From Streptacidiphilus anmyonensis (GTDB lineage Bacteria; Actinomycetota; Actinomycetes; Streptomycetales; Streptomycetaceae): a stretch of 64,000 bases of DNA. Of the stretch, positions 20,688 to 36,795 are shown in pieces (position 1 is the stretch's first letter; each line of letters starts with the position of its first letter). The translations under genes were made by a program, and so were the position numbers. The notes under the pieces were generated by a model. It was given only the letters and a program-made list of their open reading frames with translations. It did no database searches and was not told where the DNA came from. The stretch is taken from NCBI RefSeq assembly GCF_000787855.1, contig NZ_BBPQ01000010.1, forward strand, positions 79,720-143,719, given 5' to 3'.

Positions 20688-20774
20688 ACTGAACGGCTTA
20701 CTCACTGGAACGGCCGGTGTCGGTAGGTGCCAGATCCCGAAACGGCTTGCCTGGCTCCCGAGAGGAGGTGCCCC

Positions 20775-21404
20775 GTGGCGGAAGGGACCGCCCCTGCGTC
20801 GCGCTATGCGCTCTCGTTCACCAGCGGCGCCCTCCTCATGCGCGAGGCTGTCATCGCCGCGCCGATATACCTACGCGAGCACGACTGGTCGAAAGTGCGT
20901 GCGCTGATCGAGCAGGACAACCTGCTGCAGGCTCGCACGGTGGCGTCGGGGCGACGCTTCGCCCGCGAGGTCACCCAGCGACTCGCCGTGCTCACCGACG
21001 ACGAGATCGAACTGCTCATCGACACGACGGCCACCGAGCGCGGACACCTGCTGTGGGTGGCTGCCTGCCGTCGCTATGACCTGATCGGCGAGTTCGCTGA
21101 GGAGGTGGTGCGCGAGCGGTTCCTCTTGTTGACACCGACGCTCACGTACGAGGACTACGACAGCTTCGTGCGCGGCAAGGCTCTGTGGCACACCGAGCTG
21201 GCTGAGGTGAAGGACTCCACGCTGCGCAGGCTGCGCTCGAACGTGTTTCGGATGCTTAACGAGGCCGGCCTGCTCGCCGACCGCGGACACCTGCTCCAAG
21301 CCGTGCTGTCGCGGAGGGTCGCTAGTGCCCTGTGCACGCGGAGCCCGAGTGATCTGCGGTTCTTCCCCACCTTTGATGACGTTACAGGGAGGGCCGAGCG
21401 GTGA
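20775..21404 (+). CDS. brxA: BREX protein BrxA (DUF1819)
   Basis: 210 aa. The GTG at 20775 is chosen over an upstream ATG because GAGGAGG lies six bases before it. The sequence has the DUF1819 hallmarks: YALSFTSGALLMREAVIAAP, DWSKVRALIEQDNLLQART, RRFAREVTQRLAVLTDDEIE, and a C-terminal FRMLNEAGLL segment. BrxA is a small helical DNA-binding protein required, with BrxB, for BREX activity; its precise step is unsettled. Its end overlaps the GTG of brxB (GTGA). Confidence 0.9.
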   Translation: MAEGTAPASRYALSFTSGALLMREAVIAAPIYLREHDWSKVRALIEQDNLLQARTVASGRRFAREVTQRLAVLTDDEIELLIDTTATERGHLLWVAACRRYDLIGEFAEEVVRERFLLLTPTLTYEDYDSFVRGKALWHTELAEVKDSTLRRLRSNVFRMLNEAGLLADRGHLLQAVLSRRVASALCTRSPSDLRFFPTFDDVTGRAER

Positions 21405-22000
21405 CGCCGACCGAGCTGTCCAAGCAGGAAGAGCATCTGTTTCAGGTGCTCAGCAGCAAACGGTTCCTCCAGATGGAGGGTCTGAGTAACGAGGTGGCGT
21501 TCTTTATCTACCCCTACGACCCCGAGGATGCCCTCACGGTCGCGGGGGCCAAGAAGCGCGTCAAGAACCGACTCGCCAACAAGGGAATCGAGGTCAGCGA
21601 GATCAATCTCTACGACCTGTCGGTGGAGATGCTCAAAGAGCGCGGGGTCTGGGATCGTCTGCTCGCTCTCGAGCCGGAGCAGGACAAGGCCGACTTCCGC
21701 GAGCTGCTACAGGGGATGCTCGACCCGCAGCTCCATATCGCACCTGCGGTCCGCGCCAAGCTCGCCGAAGGTGACTTCGACATCTTCTTCCTCACCGGCA
21801 TCGGTGAGGTCTTCCCGTACATCCGCTCGCACAACGTGCTCAATAACTTGCAGAGCGTCGTGACAGGCAAACCGATGCTCATGTTCTTCCCCGGACGCTA
21901 CGAGCAGTCCGACACGTTGGGGTCCTCGCTCGTGCTGTTCGGGCGACTTAAAGACGACCAGTACTACCGAGCCAAGAACATCTTGGAACAGGAGGCTTGA
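21401..22000 (+). CDS. brxB: BREX protein BrxB (DUF1788)
   Basis: 199 aa starting at GTG 21401 inside the end of brxA. The DUF1788 pattern is clear: SSKRFLQMEGLSNEVAFFIY, LFFLTGIGEVFPYIRSHNVL-like segment (DIFFLTGIGEVFPYIRSHNV), NNLQSVVTGKPMLMFFPGRY and the FGRLKDDQYYRAKNI end. In known BREX type 1 systems brxB is essential for both methylation and defence and is thought to act as an adaptor. It is followed after four bases by brxC. Confidence 0.9.
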   Translation: MTPTELSKQEEHLFQVLSSKRFLQMEGLSNEVAFFIYPYDPEDALTVAGAKKRVKNRLANKGIEVSEINLYDLSVEMLKERGVWDRLLALEPEQDKADFRELLQGMLDPQLHIAPAVRAKLAEGDFDIFFLTGIGEVFPYIRSHNVLNNLQSVVTGKPMLMFFPGRYEQSDTLGSSLVLFGRLKDDQYYRAKNILEQEA

Positions 22001-22004
22001 CTCG

Positions 22005-25000
22005 ATGAAGCTGAACGGGATCTTCGCCAAGGACGTCCAGCGTCCCATCGAGGGCGTCATCAAGGCCGACGACACCGCGCACCTGGGTACCGAGGTAGAC
22101 GAGTACGTTGTGACCAACGAGGCTGCCAAGGGCCTCGAACTCTTGCTTGAGGCGTATACGAACTATACCAATGCGAACGGTGTGTGGATTTCGGGCTTCT
22201 TCGGCTCCGGTAAGTCCCATTTGCTCAAGATGCTCGCCCACTTGCTCGGCGCCGTAGACGGGCAGGAGTTCCCGCGCGAGCGTGTGTCCGAGAGCTTCCG
22301 GTCCAAGGCACAGGATGCGTTCCTCCCGGCCTTGTTGGCCAAGGCTGACCGCATCCCTGCCAAGAGCCTGCTGTTCAACATCGACCAGAAGGCCACGCTC
22401 ATCACGAAGGACCAGGCCGACGCGCTGTTGAAGGTGTTCGTCAAGGTTTTCGATGAGAGTCGCGGCTACTACGGCAACCAAGGCCACGTGGCTCGCTTCG
22501 AGCGGGACCTGGACAACCGCGGCCAGTACGGGGCGTTCAAGGCTGCGTACACACGGATCGCGGGACGCGACTGGGCGCATGGCCGCGAGGAGGGCGTGCT
22601 CGAAGAGGCCAATGTGGCCAAGGCGTACGCAGAGGTCAGCGGCCTGACTGACGGGACGCCGACCAACATCCTGACGAAGTACCGCAACGAGTACTCGGTG
22701 TCGATCGAGGACTTCGCCAACGAGGTCAAGGCATGGCTCGACAAGCAGGACGAGGGCTTCCGGCTGAATTTCTTCGTGGACGAGGCCGGCCAGTTCATCG
22801 GGTCGAACACGCACCTGATGTTGAACCTCCAGACGATCGCCGAGTCTCTGAACACCAAGTGCCAGGGGCGTGCGTGGGTCTTCGTCACTTCCCAGGAGGA
22901 CATGGATAAGGTCGTCGGCGACCGCACCAAGCAGCAGGGCAACGACTTTTCCAAGATTCAGGCGCGATTCAGGACTCGGGTGAAGCTAACCAGTGCTGAT
23001 GTTGAGGAGGTTATCCGCAAGCGTCTTCTGGAGAAGAACGAGGCAGGCGAGTCCGCCCTGGCGAAGATCTACGCCGAGCAGCACGCGAATTTTAAGACGC
23101 TATTCGACTTCGTTGACGGCGCGAAGACCTATCGCAACTACACTGACGAAGCGCACTTTACCGGCACGTACCCATTCGTCAGCTACCAGTTCCCGCTCTT
23201 CCAGGCGGCGATAGAGGGCATCTCGGACCACAACGTGTTCGAGGGACGCAACAGCTCGGTCGGTGAGCGCTCCATGCTCGGCGTCGTGCAGCAGGTCGCC
23301 AAGGACGTCGGCGATGTCGAGGTCGGCAGGCTCGCAACGTTCGACCACATGTTCGCGGGCATCCGCGCCTCGCTGAAGTCCGCAGCGCAGCGCTCGATCG
23401 ACGTCGCCGAGCGCAACCTCGACAACGAGCTTGCCGTGCGCTTGCTCAAGGCGCTGTTCCTGGTCAAGTACGTCGAGGGCTTCCACGCGACCCCGCGCAA
23501 CTTGACCGTGCTGGTCTACGACCAGTTCGGGCTTGACCTGCCCTCGTTGTCCAAGCAGGTACAGGAGGCCCTGACGCTGCTGGAGACGCAGACGTACGTT
23601 CAGCGCAACGGCAACGTCTATGAGTACCTGACCAACGAGGAACAGGTCATAGAGGAAGAGATCAAGAACGTCGAAATCGACGCCTCCGAGGCCAGCGGCC
23701 GCGTGTTCAAGATCCTCTCAGGTGATGTCATCCGCACCGGCAAACTGCGGTACACCAAGAACGGCCAGGACTTCCCGTTCGGCTATAAGCTCGACGACCA
23801 GGTGTACGGGCAGCAGCGCGAGCTGACACTTCACTTCATCACCCCCGAGTACCCGTTCGGCCCCGAAGAGACCCGGATGCACAGCGCCGGCAAAGATGAG
23901 CTGCGTGTCATCCTCGAGCCTGACGAGCGCGCCTTGTCTGACCTGCGGCTGCTCATCAAGACCGAGAAGTACATCAAGCGCAAGCAGACGAGCTCGCTCA
24001 CGGCGATCGAGGACCAGATTCTGCGCTCCAAGGCGGCGCAGAACGTCGACCGTGAGAAGGAACTCGCCGTGCGCATCCGCCAGGCAGTCGGCAAGGCAGA
24101 GCTCGTGATCAATGCCGCCGACGTGACCTCCGCAGCGCAGGACGCCATCGCCCGTGTGACCGACGGGTTCCAAGACCTCGTCAGCCGTACCTACACCCAG
24201 CTCAGCCTCCTCGGCGGGGCGACCTACAGCGAGCAGCAGGTCGCTACGTTCGCCAACCCCGACCAATCGGGCATGTTCAACGACCCGTCGCTTTCTAAGC
24301 TCGCCGCCCCGGGCGACGAAGTGTTCTCGTTCGTCATGCAACGCGACCGGCTTGGCGAGCAGGCGACCGTCAAGACGATTGTGGGTGCGTTTCAGGCAAA
24401 GCCCTACGGCTGGGATCTCGGCTCGATCGAGGTCGTCATCGCGTGGCTCGTGGGAACCTCGAGGCTCACGATCATCGTCGATGGGAACCCTCTGAAGCGC
24501 ACCGAGGTAGCGGCGGTGCTGCGCAACACCCAGAAGCACTCGCACGCCGTGGTGGCTCTGCAGAAGGTCTTCGATGAGCGCAAGGTGGCGACGCTCCGCA
24601 AGTTCTGCGCCGACTTCTTCGACGAGCCGACCGCGCCGAAGGACCCGCAGGAGCTCGCCCGGCATGCCAGCGACAAACTGCGCGGCAAGCTCGACGAGCT
24701 GAAGGCGGGTGTGAGCGGGTCGAAGTACCCGTTCGTGGAGCAGTTGGCCGCCCCGATCGCACTGCTCGAAGAGGTTGTTGGCAAGCCCGACGAGTGGTAC
24801 CTAACCGAGTTCGGTCACGGCGATGAACTGCTCGACGTCAAGGAATCCGTGATCGACCCGATCCAGTCGTTTCTTCACGGAGGCCAGCGTGCCATCTACG
24901 ACGAAGCCGCCACTCTGCTTGCGGCGAGCACGAACAACCTCGGCTACCTGCCACCCGGCAGCGACGCCGAGGTGAAGCGGCTACTCGAAGACCCAAACGC

Positions 25001-25490
25001 GTTCCGCGGCAACCGCATGATTCAGCTCAAGCAAGCCACAGAGGCGCTCGGCAAGCAGGTCGACGAAGCACTCGCGACCAACCGCGCCACTGTGATTGAG
25101 GCCATTGAGGGACGGAAGGCCGAGGTACTCAGCAGCACCTACTACAAGAGCGCCACGGAGGACGCAGGGCAGAGGGTCGTTCGCATGATCGGGCAGATCA
25201 TCGACCAAATCAGCAGCGAAAGGCAGATCGCCCTCATCCGCGAACAGGGGAACAGTTTCGAGGAGAGGACCTATCCTGCACTGCTCGATCAACTCGCCTC
25301 TTCCGCCTGCCTTGTTGGCGGCACCGAAGATCCAGCACCTGCACTCAAACAGACCGTGTCGGTCAAGACCATCACGGTGCCGGATGCCCACGGCGTGCTG
25401 GAGACCACCGAAGATATCGACCGTTACCTCGATGCGCTCCGTAGTGCCCTGCTGTCCACGCTCAACGACGGAAAGCGAATTGCGCTCTGA
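22005..25490 (+). CDS. brxC: BREX ATPase BrxC
   Basis: 1161 aa, a typical length for BrxC/PglY. Walker A is GFFGSGKSHLLKMLAHLLG (G64-S71), and a probable Walker B is LNFFVDEAGQFIG. The N-terminus FAKDVQRPIEGVIKADD and the following DEYVVTNEAAKGLELLLEAY are typical of BrxC (DUF499/P-loop class). The C-terminal half is helical and probably mediates contacts with PglX, PglZ and BrxB. GGAGG stands nine bases before the ATG. Its TGA overlaps the ATG of pglX, so synthesis of the two is coupled. Confidence 0.92.
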   Translation: MKLNGIFAKDVQRPIEGVIKADDTAHLGTEVDEYVVTNEAAKGLELLLEAYTNYTNANGVWISGFFGSGKSHLLKMLAHLLGAVDGQEFPRERVSESFRSKAQDAFLPALLAKADRIPAKSLLFNIDQKATLITKDQADALLKVFVKVFDESRGYYGNQGHVARFERDLDNRGQYGAFKAAYTRIAGRDWAHGREEGVLEEANVAKAYAEVSGLTDGTPTNILTKYRNEYSVSIEDFANEVKAWLDKQDEGFRLNFFVDEAGQFIGSNTHLMLNLQTIAESLNTKCQGRAWVFVTSQEDMDKVVGDRTKQQGNDFSKIQARFRTRVKLTSADVEEVIRKRLLEKNEAGESALAKIYAEQHANFKTLFDFVDGAKTYRNYTDEAHFTGTYPFVSYQFPLFQAAIEGISDHNVFEGRNSSVGERSMLGVVQQVAKDVGDVEVGRLATFDHMFAGIRASLKSAAQRSIDVAERNLDNELAVRLLKALFLVKYVEGFHATPRNLTVLVYDQFGLDLPSLSKQVQEALTLLETQTYVQRNGNVYEYLTNEEQVIEEEIKNVEIDASEASGRVFKILSGDVIRTGKLRYTKNGQDFPFGYKLDDQVYGQQRELTLHFITPEYPFGPEETRMHSAGKDELRVILEPDERALSDLRLLIKTEKYIKRKQTSSLTAIEDQILRSKAAQNVDREKELAVRIRQAVGKAELVINAADVTSAAQDAIARVTDGFQDLVSRTYTQLSLLGGATYSEQQVATFANPDQSGMFNDPSLSKLAAPGDEVFSFVMQRDRLGEQATVKTIVGAFQAKPYGWDLGSIEVVIAWLVGTSRLTIIVDGNPLKRTEVAAVLRNTQKHSHAVVALQKVFDERKVATLRKFCADFFDEPTAPKDPQELARHASDKLRGKLDELKAGVSGSKYPFVEQLAAPIALLEEVVGKPDEWYLTEFGHGDELLDVKESVIDPIQSFLHGGQRAIYDEAATLLAASTNNLGYLPPGSDAEVKRLLEDPNAFRGNRMIQLKQATEALGKQVDEALATNRATVIEAIEGRKAEVLSSTYYKSATEDAGQRVVRMIGQIIDQISSERQIALIREQGNSFEERTYPALLDQLASSACLVGGTEDPAPALKQTVSVKTITVPDAHGVLETTEDIDRYLDALRSALLSTLNDGKRIAL

Positions 25491-28400
25491 TGGAAACCGC
25501 TCCGCTTAAGTCTTTCGCCACCTGGGCGCGCACCGCACTCGTCCGTGAGGTGGCGGCTCGCATCGCCGTCGTGCTCGCCCCTGCCTCGTCAGAGCGTGTC
25601 GAGCAGCGCAGCGCCGTTGCGGCTTTGGAGAAGGCCGTCAATGCGACTGGCGGCGGTGACACGGGGCGCGCCGCCGTAGCGGACAAAGTTGCTTACACCT
25701 GGTTCAACCGCATTATCGCGCTGCGGTTCATGGATGCCAACGGCTACACCGGCATCAACGTCGTCTCATCCGAACGAGGCCGCGAAGGTGGCCAGCCTGA
25801 GGTCCTCGCCGAAGCCAAGCGCGGGAACATTGACAGCACGGTCGTCACCGACAAGCGCACCGTCGAGATCGTGACGACCTTGCTCAACGGCACGCGCCGC
25901 AGCGACGACCCTCAAGGCGAGGCGTACTCACTGCTGCTCGCGGAGTACTGCCGTCACTGGAACCGCTCCATGCCGTTCATGTTTGAGCGCGAGGGCGACT
26001 ACACCGAGCTGCTCATCCCTGCCAACCTACTCGCAGACGACTCTGTGTTGGCCGGTGCTGTCAGCGTACTCACCGAGGACGTCTGCCAAGACGTCGAGGC
26101 CATCGGCTGGCTGTACCAGTTCTACATCTCCGAGCGTAAGGACGAGGTCTTCGCCGGGTTCAAGAAGAACAAGAAGGCCGGCGCTGCCGAGATCCCCGCC
26201 GCCACCCAGCTCTTCACCCCACACTGGATCGTCCGCTACCTCGTCGAGAACTCGCTCGGACGGCTCTGGCTGCTCAACCGGCCGGCCTCGCGGCTTGTCG
26301 ACCGGATGGACTACTACATTGCCCCGATCGACGAGGAAACCGACTACCCCAAGGTCTCCAGCCCCGAAGAGCTGAAGATCATCGACCCCGCATGCGGCTC
26401 CGGCCACATGCTCACCTACGCGTTCGACCTGCTCTATGCCATTTATGAGGAGGAGGGCTACGCGCCGTCTGATATTCCGAGACTCATTCTTGCCAACAAC
26501 CTCCATGGGACCGAGATCGACCCTCGCGCTGGTGCGCTGGCCGCGTTCGCGCTCGTAATGAAGGCGCGAGCACGCCAACGCACGTTCTTTAACAAGCAGA
26601 TCGAACCGAACATCTGCGTACTCGAACCCATCTCGTTCAGGCCGGGCGAGCTGGACCTCCTAGTCACCCGCAGCGGCGACCGTGCTGACGAGGAAGCGTT
26701 CTGGAACCAGTTCCAGCACGCCGACGCCTTCGGGTCGCTTATTCGCCCGCGTGAGGATCTCACTGCGCGGCTTCGCCTTCATCTCGACACGCATCTCTCG
26801 GATACGCGAGACCTTATCGGAAACGATATTGAGGAGCGCGCACGGCGCGTTGTCCTCCAGGCCGAGTACCTGGGTGCCCGATACCACGCGATCGTCGCGA
26901 ACCCCCCGTACATGGGCTCGGGGAACATGAACGCACAACTTAATAGTTTCATTAAGGCGGAGTTCCCTCGTTCGAATTCTGACCTTTTCGCGGCATTCAT
27001 TGACAGAAATATTGACCTCTCCGTCCCGGGCGGACGTGTGGCCATGGTCACCATGCAGTCATGGATGTTTCTGTCGTCATTCGCAAAACTGAGGAAGTGG
27101 ATCGCCGACAGGCATCGGCTCCTTGCAATGGCCCATCTGGGCACCAATGCCTTCGGTAGCATCGGTGGGGAAGTTGTATCCACCACTGCCTTCGTGATCG
27201 GAGTCGACTCGCCACGCGAGTCTACTCTCGGAACATATGTGCGGCTCGCTGGTAGTGCCAATGAATCCGCAAAGGCGGAGGAGTTGCGTAGAATCGCATC
27301 AGGGGGCGCCTCTGCCAATCTCTACCGAGTAAGGAATGCAGATCTTGCTGCGTTGCCGGGTGCGGTGATTGCCTATTGGCTGTCCGAGCCGATGATCAAG
27401 GCCTTCTCGCTCGGGAGGCCTCTCGTGGAGATCGGTGAGCCCCGCCAAGGGCTGATTACCTCCGACAATAATCGATTCACGCGAATCTGGTCCGAAGTCA
27501 GCTGGGGCAGCTTCGGGCGAGGCCTGTCTCGCCAGGAGGCTGCCGATGGCAATTTTCAATGGCTCCCGCTCAATAAGGGGGGTGGCCCTCGAAAATGGTA
27601 TGGAAACCAGGAGTTCGTGGTCAACTGGCGCAATGACGGAGCAGAGATCCGATCATTCGGGATCGAATCTGGAAGGCCGCGATCGCGCGTGCAGAACACC
27701 GCCTACTATTTCCTGCCAGCTGTCTCGTGGTCAAAAATCGGCACCGGAATTCCAACCTTTCGCTACTATCCCGAAGGATTCATTTTCGATGTCGCCGGGA
27801 TGTCGATTTTTGCTTCGGAGCCAACCTTGTTGCACCTGGCCGCCATCTGCAACTCGTCTGTTGCCGGAGCGCTGCTAGCCGCGACCTCTCCTACGCTGAA
27901 CTTCGAAGTCGGCGCGCTTGCGCAACTTCCGGTTGTAGACATTTCGGAAGAATCGCGAAATTCAGTCAACGAACTGGTGCGGCTCCATCGGGCGGATTGG
28001 AACGAGCAGGAGACATCATGGGATTTCAGTTCCCTGAGTATAATCGCTCAAGGCGGGAGCCGGCTTGACGAGGCGGTCAATGAAGAGCTGAACCGAGGCA
28101 TTCGTATCGCCAGTCGTGTGCAAGAGCTTGAGACTCGCCTCAATGTGGAGATTGCCAAGGCGTACGGACTCGAAGGTGAGGTAGAAACAGATGTCCCCCT
28201 ATCGGGGGTAACTCTGAACGGCAATCCGGTTTATCGATTCGGAGCCGGGAAGTCTGCTGCGGAGCAGCGGAAGCTTTATGCGGCAGAGCGGGTCAACGAC
28301 TTGATCTCCTATGCGATCGCCTGCATGTTCGGGCGCTACAGCCTGGATGAGCCGGGGCTGATCCTGGCGGAGCAAGGCGACACGCTGCAAGACTATGCGG

Positions 28401-29017
28401 CCCGAGTGTCGAACCCGTCATTCATGCCTGCTACGGACAACGTGATCCCCATTGTCGACGGTGATTGGTTCGAAGACGACATCGTGGCGCGGTTCCGGCA
28501 GTTTCTGCGTGCAGCCTTCGGTGGGCAGCACTTCGAGGAGAACCTGAAATTCGTCACGGATTCGCTCGGCGTCAAGAATCTGCGCGACTACTTTGTGAAG
28601 TCGTTCTACAAGGACCACGTTCAGCGGTACAAGAAGCGGCCGATCTACTGGCTGTTCTCTAGCCCCAAGGGTTCCTTCAACGCGCTCATCTACATGCACC
28701 GCTACTCGCCGTCCACGGCGTCGACAGTGTTGAACGAGTACCTGCGGGAGTTCAAGGCGAAGCTGGAGGCTAGCCGCCGGCAGCACGAGCGCCGCGCCGT
28801 AGAGCCGGGCACGCCGCGGGAGAAGGCTGGCGCTCAGAAGGAGGTCGACCGCCTGCGGAAGGTGCTGCTCGAACTCGACGAGTACGAGCATGACGTGCTG
28901 TACCCGCTGGCAACCCGGCAGGTGCAGATCGACCTCGATGATGGGGTGAAGGCCAACTACCCGAAGCTCGGTGCAGCCTTGAAGAAGATCCCTGGACTTG
29001 AGGCAAGCGATGACTGA
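25490..29017 (+). CDS. pglX: BREX type 1 adenine-specific DNA methyltransferase PglX
   Basis: 1175 aa. AdoMet motif I is IDPACGSGHML (residues 298-308) and catalytic motif IV is ANPPYMGSGNM (N471-Y474). The N-terminal AYTWFNRIIALRFMDANGYT helix region and VETDVPLSG-type C-terminal spacer regions fit PglX. It modifies the host BREX site and also takes part in defence. The target-recognition part (about 26930-28430) is visibly poorer in GC and uses more A/T-ending codons than the flanks, consistent with exchange of specificity by recombination. The start overlaps the brxC stop. Confidence 0.93.
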   Translation: METAPLKSFATWARTALVREVAARIAVVLAPASSERVEQRSAVAALEKAVNATGGGDTGRAAVADKVAYTWFNRIIALRFMDANGYTGINVVSSERGREGGQPEVLAEAKRGNIDSTVVTDKRTVEIVTTLLNGTRRSDDPQGEAYSLLLAEYCRHWNRSMPFMFEREGDYTELLIPANLLADDSVLAGAVSVLTEDVCQDVEAIGWLYQFYISERKDEVFAGFKKNKKAGAAEIPAATQLFTPHWIVRYLVENSLGRLWLLNRPASRLVDRMDYYIAPIDEETDYPKVSSPEELKIIDPACGSGHMLTYAFDLLYAIYEEEGYAPSDIPRLILANNLHGTEIDPRAGALAAFALVMKARARQRTFFNKQIEPNICVLEPISFRPGELDLLVTRSGDRADEEAFWNQFQHADAFGSLIRPREDLTARLRLHLDTHLSDTRDLIGNDIEERARRVVLQAEYLGARYHAIVANPPYMGSGNMNAQLNSFIKAEFPRSNSDLFAAFIDRNIDLSVPGGRVAMVTMQSWMFLSSFAKLRKWIADRHRLLAMAHLGTNAFGSIGGEVVSTTAFVIGVDSPRESTLGTYVRLAGSANESAKAEELRRIASGGASANLYRVRNADLAALPGAVIAYWLSEPMIKAFSLGRPLVEIGEPRQGLITSDNNRFTRIWSEVSWGSFGRGLSRQEAADGNFQWLPLNKGGGPRKWYGNQEFVVNWRNDGAEIRSFGIESGRPRSRVQNTAYYFLPAVSWSKIGTGIPTFRYYPEGFIFDVAGMSIFASEPTLLHLAAICNSSVAGALLAATSPTLNFEVGALAQLPVVDISEESRNSVNELVRLHRADWNEQETSWDFSSLSIIAQGGSRLDEAVNEELNRGIRIASRVQELETRLNVEIAKAYGLEGEVETDVPLSGVTLNGNPVYRFGAGKSAAEQRKLYAAERVNDLISYAIACMFGRYSLDEPGLILAEQGDTLQDYAARVSNPSFMPATDNVIPIVDGDWFEDDIVARFRQFLRAAFGGQHFEENLKFVTDSLGVKNLRDYFVKSFYKDHVQRYKKRPIYWLFSSPKGSFNALIYMHRYSPSTASTVLNEYLREFKAKLEASRRQHERRAVEPGTPREKAGAQKEVDRLRKVLLELDEYEHDVLYPLATRQVQIDLDDGVKANYPKLGAALKKIPGLEASDD

Positions 29018-31505
29018 GGCATCCGCCGTCCGGTTCCACCTGAAGCGTCGCTTCGACACGCACCGAGTGGTGTTCTGGCATGATCCCGAGGGCGAGTACG
29101 CCGCTGAGCTCGACTCACTCGACTTGGACGGAATCGAGATCGTGCGTGTCGCCAACGACGAGTACGCAGTCAAGAGCTGGCTGTTGCACTTGGAGCCTGA
29201 GGCGAAGTTCCTCGTCTACCGCTCGGGCACCGTGCCGACAGGAATCGGAAACTGGTTGCTCGACCTGGAGTTGGCCTACGGGGTGTTCACCGCCGACCGC
29301 CCTTCGATGCTGCAGCAGGAACTCGGGCTCCCCTCCGACGGCATCGGCGAGGTCGTGCGGGCACACGAGAAGTTCTTCCGGGCCGTCAAGCGGGTGCAGA
29401 GCCTTAAGGCGCTGCTGCATGCCGATGACGACGCCGATAAGTTGCGCGCCAAGATGGCGGCCGTGTTGCTCGAGCAGCGCGAGCACAGTCTGCTGGAGAT
29501 CACCCGCACTCTGCTCATCGAGAACGCCGGCGGTAGCGACGCTAAGTACCGCGCCTTGGCCGACTACGGTCTCGATGAGTTCCACTGGCAGGGTGTCGGC
29601 AGGATCTACGGTTACTTGTCGCAGCGCCCAAGCATCGACGACTTCGTGCTGTGGATGTTCGACCAAGCCATCGCTGGGTTCAAGTCTGAACGTCCCGGCG
29701 GGCTGCGGAATATCCAGCTTGACTTCGGAAGACTGCGCTATGAACCCCGCAGCCAGAAGGCGATGACCACGCTTGCGAAACGCGTCGCTCGCGACCTGGA
29801 CTACGCGCGCCGGATCGAGGACGCAAGCTTCCGAGATCTGCTGGGCAATGACCTGTTCGAGGAAGTCGACCGGAAGATCATCAGCGATCTTGCGCGTGCC
29901 GTTGCCGAGCGCACCATCGCGGCCCGTGAGATCACCGAGGTCATCCGCAGCCGTCAAAGTAGCATCTGGATCGATGGCTACCGCAGGCTCTACGCCGCGA
30001 TCGGCAGCGCTTCCGATCTGCTGACAGCGCTCGGCGGGATAAGCCTGTCCATGCAGTCATTCGACGAGGGCCTGGATCGATACCGGCACGAGTGGTTCCG
30101 CATCGACCAGCTCTACCGCCAGTTCACCCACGCGGCCCGCACCGCCGAATTTACCGGGCCCCTGGAGGGATTGCGAGCACAGGTCGAGTCGTTCTATGCG
30201 AACAAGTTCATGTACACCCTCGGCGCCGCATGGCAGCAGCATGTCGATGGCGTCGACCGGTGGCGTTCCGCCGTCCTCCGGCCTCAGACCTCGTTCTTCG
30301 CCGACCACGTCAGGCCCATCACGCGGGACGGCCGGCGTAAGGCCGTCGTCATCGTCTCCGACGCCCTGCGCTACGAGATCGCCGACGAATTGGGTTCGCG
30401 AATCCGCCAGGAGGACCGTTTCGACGCGACCCTTGATGCTGTTCTGGGTGTGCTGCCGAGCTACACCCAGCTCGGGATGGCCGCGCTCTTGCCACACACC
30501 ACGATCGCACTCTCCGGTAAAGGCGATCTCGTAGATGTGGATGGCCAACCGTCGGCAGGTACTGGCAACCGCAGCAAGATCCTCGCCAGCGTGCGGGGCA
30601 CGGCGATCTCCGCCGAAAGTCTACTCGGCATGACCCGCGATGAGATTCGCGAGTTCTACCGTCAGCACCAGGTGCTGTACGTCTACCACAATCGCATCGA
30701 CGCCATCGGCGACAAGCAGGGCACTGAGCGGCAGGTTTTCGAGGCTGCAGAGAAGACGCTGGAGGAGCTTGTTGACCTGGTCAAGCGCCTCGCAAGCGCC
30801 GATGCAACCAACATCCTTGTGACCGCCGACCACGGGTTCCTCTTTCAAGACTCCGCACTCGACGACGCCGGCTACCTGTCGGTCGCCCCCCAGGGCGACG
30901 ATATCGCCGTGCGGGCACGCCGCTACGTGCTGGGAACAGGGCTGAAACCCGACCCGGCGTTCAAGACGTTCACCTCTGCGCAGCTTGGGCTTGACAGCAA
31001 CTACGAAGTGCAGGTACCGAAGTCGATCCACCGGCTGCGACTCAAGGGCTCGGGCGCGAGATTCGTGCACGGCGGCGCGACTCTCCAGGAGATTGTCCTG
31101 CCCGTGCTGGCAATCAACAGGAGGCGCAAGAGCGATACCCGCTTGGTCAACGTGGAGATCTTGCCTGAATCAGACAAGATCACGACCGGGCAGTTGGTGG
31201 TTAAGCTCTTCCAGACCGAGCCGGTGAGCGAGAAGGTCCAGCCGCGCACCGTACGGGCGGGCCTTTACGTAGGCGAGACCCTCATCTCGAACCATGCCCC
31301 GCTGGTGTTCGACCAGGAGTCGACCGACAAGCGAGACCGCTACCAGAGTGCAGTCATGCTACTAAGCCGGGATGCGAACGACTACAACAACCGGGCGGTC
31401 GAGTTCCGGCTGGAAGAACTGATCCCCAACACCAACCAGTGGCGCGTCTACGCCAAGGCGATGTACACGCTGAAGCGCTCATTCGCCTCGGACTTCGACT
31501 TCTAA
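29010..31505 (+). CDS. pglZ: BREX protein PglZ (alkaline-phosphatase-superfamily)
   Basis: 831 aa from ATG 29010, which overlaps the end of pglX by eight bases; a TTG four codons earlier is less likely. The N-terminal third (FDTHRVVFWHDPEGEYAAEL) is the usual BREX-1 PglZ opening. The PglZ domain carries AVVIVSDALRYEIADEL with metal-ligand candidate D451 and LVTADHGFLFQD with D607 and H608, the two-metal signature of the alkaline phosphatase superfamily. PglZ is a core component of all BREX types. It is followed after 15 bases by brxL. Confidence 0.93.
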   Translation: MTEASAVRFHLKRRFDTHRVVFWHDPEGEYAAELDSLDLDGIEIVRVANDEYAVKSWLLHLEPEAKFLVYRSGTVPTGIGNWLLDLELAYGVFTADRPSMLQQELGLPSDGIGEVVRAHEKFFRAVKRVQSLKALLHADDDADKLRAKMAAVLLEQREHSLLEITRTLLIENAGGSDAKYRALADYGLDEFHWQGVGRIYGYLSQRPSIDDFVLWMFDQAIAGFKSERPGGLRNIQLDFGRLRYEPRSQKAMTTLAKRVARDLDYARRIEDASFRDLLGNDLFEEVDRKIISDLARAVAERTIAAREITEVIRSRQSSIWIDGYRRLYAAIGSASDLLTALGGISLSMQSFDEGLDRYRHEWFRIDQLYRQFTHAARTAEFTGPLEGLRAQVESFYANKFMYTLGAAWQQHVDGVDRWRSAVLRPQTSFFADHVRPITRDGRRKAVVIVSDALRYEIADELGSRIRQEDRFDATLDAVLGVLPSYTQLGMAALLPHTTIALSGKGDLVDVDGQPSAGTGNRSKILASVRGTAISAESLLGMTRDEIREFYRQHQVLYVYHNRIDAIGDKQGTERQVFEAAEKTLEELVDLVKRLASADATNILVTADHGFLFQDSALDDAGYLSVAPQGDDIAVRARRYVLGTGLKPDPAFKTFTSAQLGLDSNYEVQVPKSIHRLRLKGSGARFVHGGATLQEIVLPVLAINRRRKSDTRLVNVEILPESDKITTGQLVVKLFQTEPVSEKVQPRTVRAGLYVGETLISNHAPLVFDQESTDKRDRYQSAVMLLSRDANDYNNRAVEFRLEELIPNTNQWRVYAKAMYTLKRSFASDFDF

Positions 31506-31520: not shown

Positions 31521-33659
31521 GTGAGCGAGGTCAGCCAGGAGGCATCCGCCGGCCCAGTCGCGCCAGTCGATACCGCACCGACGCAGAGCGAATTGGACCG
31601 CAAGATCAACCGGCACTTCCCGGGCGCCGTCGTGCGCAAGGACTTGGTGAAGGCTGTCAAAGGCAATGCCATCGTGCCCTCCTACGTGCTGGAATACCTG
31701 CTTGGGCAGTACGCGGCTTCCGACGACGAGGCCACCATTCAGGCGGGCATCGACACGGTACGCAAGATCCTGGCTGACCACTACGTGCACAGGAACCAGT
31801 CCGAGCTGGTGAAGTCCACGATCCGCGAGCGCGGGCGGCACCGCGTCATCGACAAGGTCACGGCCACACTCAACGAGAAGGACGACGTCTACCAGGCCGA
31901 GTTCGCCAATCTCGGCATCAAGGGCGTGCTCGTCGAGCCCGCCACGATTAAGGCGCACCCGAAGCTGCTCGTCGGAGGAGTCTGGTGCATCTGCGACATC
32001 GAGTACTTCCACGCTGACGACCCGCGGGTTGTGCCGTGGATACTCGGGTCGATCAAGCCCATCCAGTTGTCAAACTTCGACATCGAGGGCTACCTGACGG
32101 CTCGGCGCGCGTTCACCACCGACGAGTGGATCGACTTGCTCGTGCAGTCCATCGGATTCAATCCCGAGTTGTTCGGGAGAAGGGCCAAGCTCATCCAGCT
32201 AGTGCGGCTCATCCCGTTCGTGGAGCGAAACTACAACCTCGTCGAGCTGGGACCCAAGGGCACCGGCAAGTCCCACATCTTCTCGGAGTTCTCGCCCCAC
32301 GGGATGCTCATCTCCGGTGGCGAGGTCACCGTGCCGAAGCTGTTCGTCAACAACGCCAACGGGCGCATCGGCTTGGTCGGCTACTGGGATGTCGTCGCGT
32401 TCGATGAGTTCGCTGGCAAGAAGAAGCGCACCGACAGGGCGCTGGTCGACATCATGAAGAACTACATGGCGAACAAGTCCTTCTCCCGCGGCGTTGAGAC
32501 GCTCGGTGCTGAGGCGTCGATGGTGTTCGTCGGCAACACCTCCCACACCGTGCCGTACATGCTCAAGCACTCCGACTTGTTCGACGAGCTGCCGGAGAGC
32601 TACCACGACTCCGCATATCTCGACCGGCTACACCACTGCATCCCCGGGTGGGAGGTCGACACCATCCGCGGGGAGATGTTCTCGGACGGCTACGGGTTTG
32701 TCGTCGACTACATCGCCGAAGTGCTCAAGTCTATGCGCTCTCAAGACTACTCGGACCGCTACCAGCAGCACTTCTCGCTCTCGTCGGACATCTCGACGCG
32801 TGACCGCGACGGGATCCACAAGACGTTCTCTGGGCTGATGAAGATCCTCTATCCGAACGGTGAGGCGACTCCCGAGGAGATCGAGGAGATTCTGCGGTTT
32901 GCGATCGAGGGGCGCAAGCGCGTCAAGGACCAGATCCTGCGGATCGACTCGACGATGGCCGACGTCAAGTTCGGGTACCTGGACCGGAGCGGAGCCTGGC
33001 ACGCGGTTTCGACTCTGGAAGAGGACGAATACCCGGCGTATTACCATCGTGAGCGCCGCCAAGGTTCCGAGGCTGCTGACAGCGCGACCAAGCCGCCGGC
33101 GGACGCGGCGGTGCCCACCGTCCAGGATGGGACTGCGGATAAGCAAGCGCAGGTCCTGGAGGCTCCGCTGTTCGAGGGGCACCGGGAGTTCCAGGAGAAC
33201 CAGCGGGGCGTCTCGTTCGACGAGCTATTCGCCCCTTACTTGCGGGGAGCCGGGCAGATTACGATCACAGACCCCTACATTCGCCAGTTTCACCAGGCCC
33301 GCAACCTCATGGAACTTATCGAGGGGATCGCCGCCGTCAAGGATGCCGCCGACGAGGTCAACGTTAAGCTCATCACCTCAGAGAGCAATGGTGGTGAGGA
33401 CAAGGTCCGCAAGCAACTTGAACTCCTGCTCAAGGTTAAGCAGGGCGCAGCAGCCGGCGGCATCAACCTCGACGTCTCGTTCACCAACACGATCCACGAC
33501 CGCTCGATCGTCACCGACACCGGCTGGAAGATCGTGCTCGGCCGCGGCCTCGACATCTTCCAGTACGTCACTGGTGACGCGTTCGACCTCGCTACTAGGC
33601 TCCAGGAGTACCGCCAGGTCAAGGCGTTCGGTGTTACCTACATTCGCGCGGGCGGGTGA
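31521..33659 (+). CDS. brxL: BREX AAA+ protein BrxL with C-terminal MIT_C-like domain
   Basis: 712 aa, GTG start with AAGGAGGG upstream. Residues 25-510 are BrxL-like: DRKINRHFPGAVVRKDLVKA, Walker A GPKGTGKS (244-251), HGMLISGGEVTVPKLF, and Walker B WDVVAFDEFAGKKKR (D295, E296). A linker (about 515-560) follows. Residues 562-712 do not look like a Lon protease domain. They carry RGVSFDELFAPYL, ITITDPYIRQFHQARNLMEL, VKLITSES, NTIHDRSI (658-665) and WKIVLGRGLDIF, matching almost motif by motif the MIT C-terminal (PLD-fold) domain of eukaryotic MITD1. BrxL forms DNA-encircling rings in known systems. Last gene of the BREX operon. Confidence 0.9.
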   Translation: MSEVSQEASAGPVAPVDTAPTQSELDRKINRHFPGAVVRKDLVKAVKGNAIVPSYVLEYLLGQYAASDDEATIQAGIDTVRKILADHYVHRNQSELVKSTIRERGRHRVIDKVTATLNEKDDVYQAEFANLGIKGVLVEPATIKAHPKLLVGGVWCICDIEYFHADDPRVVPWILGSIKPIQLSNFDIEGYLTARRAFTTDEWIDLLVQSIGFNPELFGRRAKLIQLVRLIPFVERNYNLVELGPKGTGKSHIFSEFSPHGMLISGGEVTVPKLFVNNANGRIGLVGYWDVVAFDEFAGKKKRTDRALVDIMKNYMANKSFSRGVETLGAEASMVFVGNTSHTVPYMLKHSDLFDELPESYHDSAYLDRLHHCIPGWEVDTIRGEMFSDGYGFVVDYIAEVLKSMRSQDYSDRYQQHFSLSSDISTRDRDGIHKTFSGLMKILYPNGEATPEEIEEILRFAIEGRKRVKDQILRIDSTMADVKFGYLDRSGAWHAVSTLEEDEYPAYYHRERRQGSEAADSATKPPADAAVPTVQDGTADKQAQVLEAPLFEGHREFQENQRGVSFDELFAPYLRGAGQITITDPYIRQFHQARNLMELIEGIAAVKDAADEVNVKLITSESNGGEDKVRKQLELLLKVKQGAAAGGINLDVSFTNTIHDRSIVTDTGWKIVLGRGLDIFQYVTGDAFDLATRLQEYRQVKAFGVTYIRAGG

Positions 33660-33782: not shown

Positions 33783-35213
33783 CTACATGTAGAACGCGTA
33801 CCGACCCTGCGGACGGTCTTGCGGGCCCAAGTGGCGGAGGATCTGTCCGACCTGGTTGGCGGTACGCAGGGTGATGGGCTGTCGGCCGTCAAGCTGGGTC
33901 TGGTTCCAATTCATCTTGGTCAACGCGAGTAGTTCCTTGGCAAGATGTTCCGGGCTGGATTCGGTCTCGACCATGCGGAAGGGGAGCGGCGCGGGGATGT
34001 ACATGCCCGGGTAGGTGCCATAGAAGGGCACGCTGCCGCGGGTGTAGAGCACGTGCTGGCGGGCGTCGAGGCTGAAGAGTGTGCCTCGCAGTGGCGGGTG
34101 CGCGGCCGACCGGAACAGCCGCGTGGGGTCACTGGCAGGAAACCAGAGCAATTCGACGGTATCGATGTCTGCGTCGTCGGCGGCAGCGCGGAACCCGTCG
34201 ATTTCCTCCGGCGTGTAAGAGGAGGTCTTGTGCAAGACCACCCGCGCAGGAAGATGGCGGTGTTCTTGGCGGTATCGGCGCAGCGCGTCGGCGAACAACG
34301 CGTGCGCATCTGCTTGCGCGAGATGCGGCTGCCTGTCGTGGCGCGAGACTTTGGCGGCAGCTCCGCGGACGATGACGCCGTCGCCGCGCTGGTTGAACAC
34401 CTGGGCGACGCTGGTCTCCAGCGTGGTGTGGTCGCCGCTGCGGTAGAACGTGATCCCGACGTAGCAGCTGTCGAGGTCTGTCGGCTCGCGGGGAAGGCGC
34501 CAGGGAACGCCACCGGCCTTGTAGTACAGGGCGGTGTGCAGGTTCCATGCACGGGTGGCCTCGTCTTGCAGATGGGGCCTGTCTCTGCCGGGTGGGGTGA
34601 AGCTCGGGTCCCATGTGCTGCGGCGGATGATCTGGATGGGACGGCTGTAACGCATGGCCACGGCCTTGAGCACGGCGCGGAAGTCGTCCACCGGCTCGGC
34701 TAGCGGGGCCTTCTTCCAAGGCGCATCCGGGTCAATCCCGGGTATGGGTCGCTCAGGCAGATGCTCGGGCCGGGCGATCAGCACGACGTCGCATCCAGGT
34801 TCCTCGTCCAGAACGTCGAGCTCGGCGGCGTAAAGCTGCACCGCAGCCTTGACTGCGTCCCGAGGGCTGAGGTCGGCTATCTGCTTCAGATCACGGTCGC
34901 GGATGGGGCGCTCCAGCCGCGAATCCCACACCAGCGTCGACCGGAAACCGGTGCTGGTGTCGAAGCCCGGGAACGGTACGAACAGCCGCCCGAGCCGACT
35001 GTCCTTCGCGGCGATCGGTTGGCGGCATCCATCGAACCAGCGCCGTAGGCCCTGAACGGAGGCAGGTGGCCCGACGATGCCGACCCGGATGGTGCGCACG
35101 GCGGTGTTGGTAGCGTCAGCCGGTCCGTAGTCGGTAATGCCGTGACGCGGGTCGATGTGGCGGGTACCGCCGCTGAACTCCAACGGCGGCTCGTCCAGTA
35201 CGGTCAGCTTCAC
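33783..35213 (-). CDS. Short prokaryotic Argonaute (MID-PIWI)
   Basis: 476 aa, no PAZ domain, the size of short pAgos. The MID region (about 150-240) contains VDDFRAVLKAVAMRYSRPIQ and IIRRSTWDP. The PIWI domain begins at SCYVGITFYRSG (250-260), where the first catalytic Asp of active Argonautes is replaced. It continues with GDGVIVRGAAAK, the LPARVVLHKTSSYTPEEIDG block (321-340) and the C-terminal hallmark TKMNWNQTQLDGRQPITLRT, ending in RYAFYM, which binds the guide 5' end in the family. It is therefore predicted to bind guide and target but not cut. The GTG start overlaps the stop of the DREN-APAZ gene, the partner effector. It converges on brxL, 123 bp away. Confidence 0.88.
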   Translation of the reverse strand: MKLTVLDEPPLEFSGGTRHIDPRHGITDYGPADATNTAVRTIRVGIVGPPASVQGLRRWFDGCRQPIAAKDSRLGRLFVPFPGFDTSTGFRSTLVWDSRLERPIRDRDLKQIADLSPRDAVKAAVQLYAAELDVLDEEPGCDVVLIARPEHLPERPIPGIDPDAPWKKAPLAEPVDDFRAVLKAVAMRYSRPIQIIRRSTWDPSFTPPGRDRPHLQDEATRAWNLHTALYYKAGGVPWRLPREPTDLDSCYVGITFYRSGDHTTLETSVAQVFNQRGDGVIVRGAAAKVSRHDRQPHLAQADAHALFADALRRYRQEHRHLPARVVLHKTSSYTPEEIDGFRAAADDADIDTVELLWFPASDPTRLFRSAAHPPLRGTLFSLDARQHVLYTRGSVPFYGTYPGMYIPAPLPFRMVETESSPEHLAKELLALTKMNWNQTQLDGRQPITLRTANQVGQILRHLGPQDRPQGRYAFYM

Positions 35214-36565
35214 AGCTCCACCTCGAAGAGGGCCAGCTCGCCGTCGGTTGGGTCGTCGACCTTGGACGGACCTTCGACGGTGTCCGCACTATTGGTGTCG
35301 GTCTTGCGGGGGTCGTCCAGCCACGCCGCGTCGTCGATGGCGCGGTCGGTGGTGAGGGTAACCAGGTCGCCGAATTCCAAGATCGTGTCGCGAGGATCGA
35401 GCACTCCGTCCTCACCGCGCAGGTAGGTTGCCCACATCTGGGTCTGTCCATGAACAGCCGGATTGCGGTCGAGTCGCTTGATACCTGTCAGGTACTCGGA
35501 CAGATACAAGGAGTCTCGATGGCCGTCTCGGGTGTAGTGGAAGGTCGGAGTCAGCGCGCAGTACCAGTCGCCGTCAAGGAAGTGGAACTGCCACTCCAGT
35601 GCGGCGTGCTTGCAGTAGCTGACCTCGTCGGCTGCCTGCTTCTTGAACTTCGGATGAAACACAAGCCGTTGACGCCCACTCGCTCCACGGATGTGGCGCG
35701 GCTTCAAATTGGGAGTGGGGCGGAAGTAGACGATCTTGCGCCCGGCATGCCACGCACAGTCACTGTCGACATCGCGCTGCAGCGCGTAGTTCAGCAGTTG
35801 GACCAGCCAGCGCTGTCGGACTGGGTCAGAACTCCACTCGTCGAAACCCGTTGCGTCGGTGGGACCGTTGACGGCGTGCCGCAGCGCGGTCGCTTCGGGC
35901 GGCAGCCAGGTGTAGATGAGTCCACCTCGCAGAATGAAGTCGTGCCGCACATCTGGGTCTTCGCTCTCACGTTGCCTGACGATGATGTCTCGCGGGACGG
36001 TGTAACTGGTCGGCGCGCTGTAGATCAGGTGGGGGAGGGTAAGCCGCAGCAGGTTGGTGGTCAGAACCTCTTCGCGGCGCTCGGCAACCGGCACGTGGGC
36101 GCGCCCGTGCGGATCGGCGAGGTTGAGTAGCCGGTGTGCCGCGCCTCGGTCGAAGCTTTGCGTGCGCTTGTCGAAGTCGATCCGGCCCGAGGCACGGTGA
36201 CCGGGGTCGGTGAACCAACTCTGGATGTGAATCCACCACGCCTCGCCAGTCTGTGGGTGTGAGCAGACCAAGATGACGGGATTGTCGGCACTCATCCAGT
36301 AGTCCACATCTTCCTGCTTGCACAGGTAGTGGAAGCCGCGTTCGCTCTCCCCAGAAAACGGCCGCTCGCTGGCCTTGCTTTGCACCAGGATCAGCCTGTT
36401 GGCGACCTCGCCGGTGGACGGGTCGCGCAGTTCGATCTCCCCGTCGATGCCAGCATCGAGTGTTCCGGCACGCTCGTGCCAAACGAAGCCCATGCTGTTG
36501 ATCATCTGATGGATGAGGGCGATGCCACTGTCCCCGATGTGGGAACTCCTGCCAATCTTCTTCAT
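35210..36565 (-). CDS. DUF4365/DREN nuclease fused to APAZ (SPARDA effector)
   Basis: 451 aa from the ATG at 36565 (MKKIGRSS); the frame is open 20 codons further upstream but that part is not domain-like. Residues 1-150 are DUF4365: HIGDSGIALIHQMINSMGF, then LDAGIDGEIELRD and NRLILVQSKASE. D41 and the Q62-x-K64 pair form a PD-(D/E)XK variant core as in DREN nucleases. Residues about 180-450 are APAZ-like and end in an acidic tail. DREN-APAZ with a short Argonaute is the SPARDA arrangement: guide-directed target recognition by Argonaute is thought to unleash indiscriminate DNA and RNA cleavage, killing or arresting the infected cell. Confidence 0.82.
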   Translation of the reverse strand: MKKIGRSSHIGDSGIALIHQMINSMGFVWHERAGTLDAGIDGEIELRDPSTGEVANRLILVQSKASERPFSGESERGFHYLCKQEDVDYWMSADNPVILVCSHPQTGEAWWIHIQSWFTDPGHRASGRIDFDKRTQSFDRGAAHRLLNLADPHGRAHVPVAERREEVLTTNLLRLTLPHLIYSAPTSYTVPRDIIVRQRESEDPDVRHDFILRGGLIYTWLPPEATALRHAVNGPTDATGFDEWSSDPVRQRWLVQLLNYALQRDVDSDCAWHAGRKIVYFRPTPNLKPRHIRGASGRQRLVFHPKFKKQAADEVSYCKHAALEWQFHFLDGDWYCALTPTFHYTRDGHRDSLYLSEYLTGIKRLDRNPAVHGQTQMWATYLRGEDGVLDPRDTILEFGDLVTLTTDRAIDDAAWLDDPRKTDTNSADTVEGPSKVDDPTDGELALFEVEL

Positions 36566-36795
36566 TCCGTTCCCATCACCAGGCGCGAGCTGCATCCCCG
36601 CGTCGCAGAGGTGGGCGACCATCACTAGTCAGATCAGCCATCGCTGCGGCTCCCTTCGCGGTGGTTGTTCACGTTACGCCAGGGGTCTGACAACAGGGAT
36701 GGCTAGCCGTCACGCGATCAGGAGTCCGAAGGGAGCGGCTCGGGAGCAGGCCGCCTCCCGAGGCTCGGTGTACGGCGGCCGGCGAATTAACGGCA

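What the first reader, a model, noticed from the sequence alone, without database searches (positions are those of the whole stretch)
31521..33659. BrxL whose C-terminal domain is MIT_C (PLD-fold)-like instead of Lon-like
The AAA+ part (Walker A 244-251, Walker B around D295-E296) is typical BrxL. From residue 562 the motifs follow those of the human MITD1 C-terminal domain in order: a SFxELFxxYL entry, a TDPYIRxxHQxxNL block, a LITSES strand, an IHDR block (658-661) and a WKIxLGRGLDxF block (674-680). MITD1's domain has a phospholipase-D fold and binds membrane phosphoinositides. A BREX AAA+ ring carrying a membrane- or nucleic-acid-binding PLD fold in place of a protease-like domain would change ideas about what BrxL does after sensing phage DNA. 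I compared with MITD1 from memory; the order and spacing are seen here.
Basis: partly seen in the sequence, partly recalled or inferred. Interest (0 to 1): 0.82.

Follow-up and report, generated by a model that had tools for sequence, protein, structure and literature searches.

The report
BREX protein BrxL with MITD1-like domain
This bacterial anti-phage ring protein really does end in a domain that matches the C-terminal half of the human cell-division protein MITD1, but that swap is common among BrxL proteins and was published in January 2026 as a putative DNA-cutting domain; what it does is still untested.

Summary
ORF 31521-33659 is BrxL of a complete type 1 BREX operon, and residues 563-709 match Pfam MIT_C over its whole length (E 4e-39). 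The predicted domain (pLDDT 93) matches human MITD1 at Z 23; the next PLD-fold protein is at Z 10. It is not Lon-like. It is not new: PMC12839542 (NAR 2026) counts 1030 of 2913 BrxL with this swap and calls it an HKD-endoDNase of "HRD" type, without naming MIT_C or MITD1 in its main text. In my sample of 39 classifiable BrxL, 12 are MIT_C, 20 Lon-like, 6 Schlafen-AlbA_2 and 1 protein kinase. In 111 distinct prokaryotic or viral-contig MIT_C domains the His and Arg of HxR are invariant; the published "D" is not (96 D, 14 N, 1 S). All ten residues invariant in the 111 are kept in human MITD1. Best mechanism: a phosphate-handling, possibly DNA-cutting, PLD-fold pair where the two BrxL rings join. 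A non-catalytic role is nearly as likely; membrane binding is possible but weakly supported.

The parts
31521..33659 (+). brxL coding sequence (712 aa, GTG start, stop included)
   Evidence: ORF; PADLOC BrxL PDLC02508 E 0 over residues 23-710
31614..32006 (+). BrxL_N domain, residues 32-162
   Evidence: Pfam PF20442 E 1.9e-47
32040..32960 (+). BrxL AAA+ ATPase domain, residues 174-480
   Evidence: Pfam PF13337 E 3.3e-127
32250..32273 (+). Walker A, residues 244-251
   Evidence: sequence; invariant in A2
32403..32408 (+). Walker B D295-E296
   Evidence: sequence; both invariant in A2
33051..33158 (+). low-confidence, poorly conserved linker, residues 511-546
   Evidence: pLDDT under 50 in the full-length model; linker 481-555 mean majority-residue share 0.50 against 0.89 in the ATPase and 0.67 in MIT_C
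33207..33647 (+). MIT_C (PLD-fold) domain, residues 563-709
   Evidence: Pfam PF16565 E 4.1e-39; model pLDDT 93.4; MITD1 Z 23.1
33270..33305 (+). D584-P-Y-I-R588-x-x-x-Q592-x-R594-N595 motif after the second strand
33495..33518 (+). HxRx4D motif H659-D-R661-SIVT-D666, at the place of the PLD HxKx4D motif
   Evidence: H and R in 111 of 111, D in 96 of 111 distinct domains; aligned with MHQKFAIID of the PLDc_2 protein in L006
33540..33554 (+). G674-R-G-L-D678 motif after the sixth strand
   Evidence: R, G, L and D of 675-678 invariant in 111 of 111
20727..21404 (+). brxA
   Evidence: Pfam BrxA E 7.6e-51
21401..22000 (+). brxB
   Evidence: Pfam BrxB E 2.4e-40
22005..25490 (+). brxC
   Evidence: NCBIfam BREX_BrxC 1134 bits
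25490..29017 (+). pglX
   Evidence: NCBIfam BREX_1_MTaseX 1329 bits
28998..31505 (+). pglZ, BREX-1 type A
   Evidence: NCBIfam TIGR02687 752 bits

Best explanation
The gene encodes BrxL of a type 1 BREX system whose Lon-like C-terminal domain is replaced by a MIT_C-family PLD-fold domain (shown). Inferred mechanism: the NTD-AAA+ part forms a ring around double-stranded DNA, as in the Acinetobacter BrxL structure, and the C-terminal domains sit at the equator where two rings meet tail to tail. Single-motif PLD domains commonly work as two-fold dimers (general knowledge), so the MIT_C domains of opposing rings would pair there and form composite pockets lined by H659, R661, R588, Q592, N595 and R675-D678, facing the DNA. 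Those pockets would bind, and probably cleave, phosphodiesters of the trapped phage DNA once the rings have assembled. Fold, family, residue invariance and operon position are shown; pairing, chamber placement and cleavage are inferred.
For: Full-length MIT_C match. Model pLDDT 93.4, with PLD-superfamily nucleases among the matches after MITD1: SauUSI Z 10.3, NucT 8.8, Nuc 8.4, BfiI 8.2. H659 and R661 in 111 of 111 distinct domains, aligned with the H and K of a genuine HKD protein (probability only 34). Many invariant residues (D584, Y586, R588, T619, H659, R661, R675-D678) lie at or just after strand ends (positions against secondary structure, by eye). In Acinetobacter BrxL the C-terminal domains make the ring-ring contact (PMC10164562, passages). 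Other occupants of the same slot include Schlafen-AlbA_2 and a protein kinase, families with known effectors. The published reading is also an endoDNase (PMC12839542, section 19).
Against: The Lys of HKD enzymes is Arg in all 111 copies, and human PLD1 K898R (the HKD lysine, recalled) is used as an inactive mutant in two papers (PMC1698916, PMC2739277; passages). The motif D is N or S in 15 of 111. Lipid enzymes and others rank as high as the nucleases after MITD1: human PLD2 and PLD1 come first in Foldseek, E. coli phosphatidylserine synthase has Z 9.1, and FAM83B is also listed (Z 8.0). MITD1, the nearest relative, is known for binding membranes (title only). In the Acinetobacter structure the C-terminal domains lie far from the bound DNA. 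No activity data and no dimer model were obtained; the ATPase part of my full-length model is unreliable. PglZ already supplies a nuclease in BREX-1 (PMC12839542, passages).
Confidence: 0.42

Rival explanations
1. A PLD-fold pseudo-enzyme: the HxR pocket binds a phosphate group (DNA backbone, DNA end or nucleotide) and the domain mainly dimerises rings or senses DNA, without cutting.
For: K to R in all 111 copies and PLD1 K898R being inactive; D not fixed; the Lon-like domain it replaces lacks the protease dyad and joins the rings; human MITD1 keeps the same ten invariant residues.
Against: Invariance of the His in 111 of 111 is more than simple dimerisation would need; other occupants of the slot belong to enzyme families.
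Confidence: 0.36
2. A membrane or phosphoinositide-binding tether, or a lipid-acting domain, placing BrxL near the envelope where phage DNA enters.
For: MITD1 is the closest fold by a wide margin (Z 23.1 against 10.3) and its PLD fold is reported to bind membranes (title only); phospholipases D and phosphatidylserine synthase are among the next folds; a bacterial MIT_C sits on a Dynamin_N protein (L167).
Against: The domain occurs in lineages without phosphoinositides (organisms; lipid content recalled); what is conserved is a His/Arg pocket; a ring around DNA has no evident membrane contact; an IF2_N fusion (L169) has no evident membrane link.
Confidence: 0.12
3. The C-terminal domain is a diverged Lon S16 domain and the MITD1 match is misleading.
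For: Database names call the protein Lon-like.
Against: No Lon_C match here; MIT_C E 4e-39; PLD fold at pLDDT 93 with MITD1 Z 23; TIGR02653 aligns only to residue 490.
Confidence: 0.01

Closest known systems
BrxL with C-terminal HKD-endoDNase (Rakesh & Krishnan, NAR 2026, PMC12839542)
   Same: Type 1 BREX BrxL in which a PLD-superfamily domain with K to R in the motif replaces the Lon-like domain; 1030 of 2913 taxa there. I take this to be the same thing as the window protein.
   Different: They call it an HKD/HRD endoDNase and do not mention MIT_C or MITD1 in the main text. Here D is not fixed and the nearest relative is MITD1. Their supplements were not seen, so identity of the two sets is inferred.
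Human MITD1 C-terminal domain (PDB 4a5z, 2ymb)
   Same: Same Pfam family and fold (Z 23.1, rmsd 1.6 over 154 residues); all 10 residues invariant in 111 prokaryotic or viral-contig domains are kept.
   Different: Fused to a MIT domain that binds ESCRT-III, not to an AAA+ ring; N at the D666 position and Y at R594.
Acinetobacter BrxL (8emc/8emh, PMC10164562)
   Same: NTD and AAA+ ATPase align over residues 22-499 (E 8e-143).
   Different: Its C-terminal domain is Lon/RadA-like and monomeric on its own.
PLD-superfamily restriction nucleases (Nuc, NucT, BfiI, NgoAVII R, SauUSI)
   Same: Same superfamily fold, Z 8 to 10.
   Different: They use HxK motifs (recalled); here HxR, and RGLD in place of a GSxN type motif (recalled).

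Membership tests
[quoted passage not shown]
   PF20442 E 1.9e-47 and PF13337 E 3.3e-127; TIGR02688 622 bits against cut-off 329
BrxL (type 1 BREX) | Last gene of a BrxA-B-C-PglX-PglZ operon | tested here: met
   All five partners upstream on the same strand, 20727-31505
BrxL (type 1 BREX) | Lon-like C-terminal domain (usual, but not defining: published BrxL include the HKD variant) | tested here: not met
   No Lon_C; MIT_C instead
MIT_C (PF16565) | Score above Pfam's curated cut-off over the whole model | tested here: met
   134.2 bits against 25, positions 1-142 of 142
MIT_C (PF16565) | MITD1 C-terminal fold | tested here: met
   Foldseek E 2.1e-18, TM 0.87/0.90; Z 23.1
HKD phosphodiesterase / endoDNase | HxK catalytic pair | tested here: not met
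   HxR in 111 of 111 distinct domains
HKD phosphodiesterase / endoDNase | D four residues after the K/R | tested here: inconclusive
   Present here (D666) and in 96 of 111; N in 14, S in 1. TDP1-type enzymes lack it (recalled)
HKD phosphodiesterase / endoDNase | DNA cleavage | not testable with these tools
   No assay available
Lon protease S16 domain | Lon_C profile match | tested here: not met
   Not listed at E up to 1
MITD1-type membrane binder | Binding to lipid membranes | not testable with these tools
   No lipid assay; the MITD1 paper was not held

The most novel reading that the evidence does not exclude
BrxL is a common DNA-encircling chassis whose C-terminus is an exchangeable effector slot (dead Lon-like, MIT_C/PLD, Schlafen-AlbA_2, protein kinase). 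MIT_C is mainly a bacterial defence module with its own HxR phosphate-handling site, distinct from HKD nucleases, and eukaryotes took it into the ESCRT abscission protein MITD1 with all ten invariant residues intact. If so, MITD1 may keep an unrecognised activity.
Probability: 0.3. Interest if true: 0.72.

Novelty: new member of a known kind. Interest (0 to 1): 0.42.

Why it matters
What BrxL does after it loads on phage DNA is an open question in BREX. About a third of BrxL proteins carry this domain (1030 of 2913 in print; 12 of 39 here), so a single H659A or R661A mutant asks directly whether BrxL itself attacks DNA in those systems. The Schlafen and kinase versions suggest that one AAA+ ring serves several different effector outputs. 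The match of all ten invariant residues to human MITD1 also gives cell biologists a reason to test MITD1 for phosphate chemistry.

Tried and rejected
Lon-like reading: rejected.

MIT_C as an exclusively BrxL domain: held in the 794-genome sample (12 of 12 above-cut-off matches in BrxL frames), but rejected as a general rule by the plasmid search. Of 25 plasmid records with a match I opened the three annotated as something other than BrxL or Lon: L167 (Dynamin_N + MIT_C) and L169 (IF2_N + MIT_C) are not BrxL, and L168 is a broken BrxL. Four records without annotation at the match (H11, H16, H20, H21) were not opened.

Weak MIT_C matches: five sub-cut-off matches (one, four) were not counted. 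L006 is a PLDc_2 protein. I read two of the other four (L098, L101); the frames look like ABC-transporter ATPases by eye, so chance. L099 and L100 were not read.

MIT_C in phage genomes: no match in 50,697 phage records. 19 IMG/VR contigs carry it, 18 of them in frames that also match the BrxL core; L165 shows only the domain, cut at the end of the stretch.

Full-length structure: residues 239-384 of the ATPase have pLDDT under 50, so no ring geometry was drawn from it. Single origin of the PLD swap: the tree needs two changes if the very long branch of the G060 protein (L003/L139) is included and one if it is left out, so undecided. The origin of MITD1 was not tested: only the human sequence was at hand and I had no eukaryote or Asgard set to search.

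A search for papers on K898R with HKD found none; K898R with PLD1 found the two used. Papers not held: Menshen paper and the MITD1 structure paper.

Full report
OBSERVATION. ORF 31521-33659 (+) encodes 712 residues. Pfam finds BrxL_N at 32-162, BrxL_ATPase at 174-480 and MIT_C at 563-709, the last at E 4.1e-39 over the whole model. A PDB sequence search matches the first part to Acinetobacter BrxL (8emc, residues 22-499) and the last part to human MITD1 (domain alone E 7.9e-17; 58-row profile E 6.3e-31). The gene closes a complete BREX-1 operon: BrxA 20727, BrxB 21401, BrxC 22005, PglX 25490 and PglZ type A 28998.

STRUCTURE. AlphaFold2 on residues 550-712 with 57 relatives gives pLDDT 93.4 and pTM 0.89. 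Foldseek ranks MITD1 first (E 2.1e-18, TM 0.87/0.90), then human PLD2 and PLD1 and mouse PLD3 (E 2.5e-5 to 5.4e-5). VIA-align gives Z 23.1 (rmsd 1.6 over 154 residues) for MITD1; the next entries are PLD-fold proteins of several functions at Z 10.3 and below: the restriction enzyme SauUSI 10.3, phosphatidylserine synthase 9.1, NucT 8.8, TDP1 8.8, Nuc 8.4, BfiI 8.2, FAM83B 8.0. So it is PLD-fold and specifically MITD1-like; the fold alone does not choose between nucleic acid and lipid. In the full-length model the domain is again confident and follows a low-confidence linker (511-546), but the ATPase part is unreliable.

HOW COMMON. In 398 genomes of the phylum of G487 (the genome of Pseudomonas locus L076), 17 had BrxL_ATPase above cut-off and 7 had MIT_C above cut-off. 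In 396 genomes of the window's own phylum, itself included, the numbers were 23 and 5. All 12 MIT_C matches lie in the same open frame as a BrxL ATPase. In 14 control genomes MIT_C was found in none and BrxL_ATPase in 2. In 100 nearer relatives three genomes had BrxL, all three with MIT_C (L087-L089, two of them already counted). I classified the C-termini of the 41 above-cut-off BrxL frames (17 and 24; G206 has two). Two could not be classified: L132 is cut by a contig end and L140 is a 58-residue fragment. Of the other 39, 12 are MIT_C, 20 Lon-like (16 above the Lon_C cut-off; 4 below it: L112, L126, L128, L141), 6 SLFN_AlbA_2 (L120, L122, L124, L134, L135, L138) and 1 a Ser/Thr protein kinase (L137). 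A separate scan of the genome collection returned the 80 best of 556 relatives; all 80 carry the domain, in Actinomycetota, Pseudomonadota, Thermodesulfobacteriota and Campylobacterota. That set is biased towards the window by design.

GENE CONTEXT. Of those 80 loci, 75 hold at least 2.5 kb upstream. In 66 PglZ directly precedes BrxL by a strict distance rule; in three more (L014, L029, L041) it overlaps further because frames were cut stop to stop; in four (L036, L039, L065, L073) 1.6-3.5 kb separates PglZ and BrxL; L012 shows no PglZ match in the stretch and L055 only a fragment. Two Schlafen-type loci and the kinase-type locus also sit in BREX operons: L143 (kinase) and L144 (Schlafen) with BrxC, PglX-like and PglZ type B, L142 (Schlafen) with PglX and a PglZ nearest the type 6 model; the PglX of L143 and L144 and the PglZ of L142 score below those models' cut-offs.

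HISTORY OF THE SWAP. A quick tree of the NTD-ATPase part has 56 rows: the classifiable frames without L124, the same-genus L087, and 17 of the 80 loci picked by hand. Labels are strongly clustered (5 changes against 21.8 in shuffles). Without the extremely long branch L139, the 29 PLD rows form one side of a branch with full support; Schlafen needs two changes, forced by well-supported branches. So MIT_C needs one or two changes and Schlafen two (two gains, or a gain and a loss). Only SH-aLRT support was computed.

THE POCKET. In 86 BrxL-MIT_C proteins 17 positions are invariant. In 111 distinct domains, including plasmid, viral-contig and non-BrxL copies, ten of these remain invariant: G563, Q592, N595, G647, H659, R661, R675, G676, L677, D678. 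Read by eye off the alignments, human MITD1 keeps all ten, and 16 of the 17 (Y replaces R594). H659 and R661 sit where a genuine HKD protein (L006, PLDc_2) has the H and K of MHQKFAIID (hhalign probability only 34, E 4e-4). The aspartate called part of an HRD triad in print is D in 96, N in 14 and S in 1 of 111, and N in MITD1. The conserved signature is therefore HxR with Q, N and RGLD, not HRD. This bears on the published inference that K to R "likely preserves" activity: human PLD1 K898R (the HKD lysine, recalled) is used as an inactive mutant (PMC1698916 and PMC2739277, passages). Yet an unbroken His in 111 of 111 argues for a real site. I therefore rate catalysis and non-catalytic phosphate binding as close rivals.

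MECHANISM. In Acinetobacter BrxL the N-terminal and AAA+ parts grip DNA and the C-terminal domains join two rings tail to tail, far from the DNA in a wide chamber (PMC10164562, passages). PLD domains with one motif commonly act as two-fold pairs (general knowledge). Placing MIT_C in that slot would give a belt of paired pockets around the trapped DNA. This is inference; no multimer was modelled, and the distance from the DNA in the known structure is a difficulty for it.

LITERATURE. Rakesh & Krishnan 2026 (PMC12839542; abstract, section 19 in full and passages) report 1030 of 2913 BrxL with a C-terminal HKD-endoDNase, citing Li et al. 2025 (not held, nothing seen). They describe this variant as specific to type 1 BREX and type 4 BrxL as lacking C-terminal extensions. 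PF16565, by its Pfam name, is listed with BREX in one sentence of PMC12715929 (passages). Searches: MIT_C with BrxL (of four papers only PMC12715929 concerns bacterial defence, by title and passages), BrxL with phospholipase D, MITD1 with BREX (one paper, unrelated by its title), PF16565 (PMC12715929 only), BrxL with Schlafen (only PMC12839542, where Schlafen is described as fused to a histidine kinase and wHTH), BrxL with HKD since 2024 (only PMC12839542). None of these turned up a discussion of BrxL and MITD1, or of Schlafen- or kinase-fused BrxL, in what I read. The library holds open-licence papers only, and supplements were not readable, so this is a limited absence.

VERDICT. What may be new is the MITD1 identity with a shared invariant pocket, the non-fixed D, the extra slot occupants and the non-BrxL MIT_C fusions.

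Noticed in passing
L137:1012-3480 (+), operon in L143: BrxL NTD and ATPase fused to a Ser/Thr protein kinase (HRDIKPQN present, DFN in place of DFG) in a BREX operon with PglZ type B.
   Followed up: partly
L120, L122, L124, L134, L135, L138; operons in L142 and L144: Six BrxL whose C-terminal domain is SLFN_AlbA_2 above the Pfam cut-off; they fall in two places on the BrxL tree (five of the six were in it).
   Followed up: partly
L146:9267-19274 and L170:3024-10459 (genome G060): A very divergent BrxL with MIT_C in an operon with SspB-like DUF4007, an SspC/BrxC-like ATPase, a distant PglZ and, by motifs read by eye, an adenine methyltransferase. It is not a standard type 1 system, although HKD BrxL is described in print as type 1 specific.
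   Followed up: partly
L167:2613-5468 (+), plasmid of Candidatus Thiodictyon syntrophicum: A dynamin-like GTPase (Dynamin_N, weak LeoA/LeoBC match) ending in MIT_C, with no BrxL core.
   Followed up: partly
L169:4440-5489 (+), plasmid of Paenarthrobacter sp. YJN-5: IF2_N domain fused to MIT_C; FHA and Ser/Thr kinase genes nearby and no BREX gene annotated in the 10 kb shown.
   Followed up: partly
window 33783-36625 (-): Convergent pair beside the BREX operon: short prokaryotic Argonaute (Piwi part) and a DUF4365 nuclease-type partner (PADLOC pAgo_I and Aga_REase-PNTD).
   Followed up: no
window 36796-41020 (-): Next to it an 885-aa protein with a weak, sub-cut-off PLDc_2 match and a 524-aa protein without a Pfam match; possibly another defence pair.
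   Followed up: no
L168:3283-5432 (+), Hymenobacter sp. BRD67 plasmid: BrxL is broken into several frames while the MIT_C frame stays open.
   Followed up: no
L036, L039, L065, L073: A stretch of 1.6-3.5 kb separates PglZ from BrxL, unlike most PLD-type loci.
   Followed up: no
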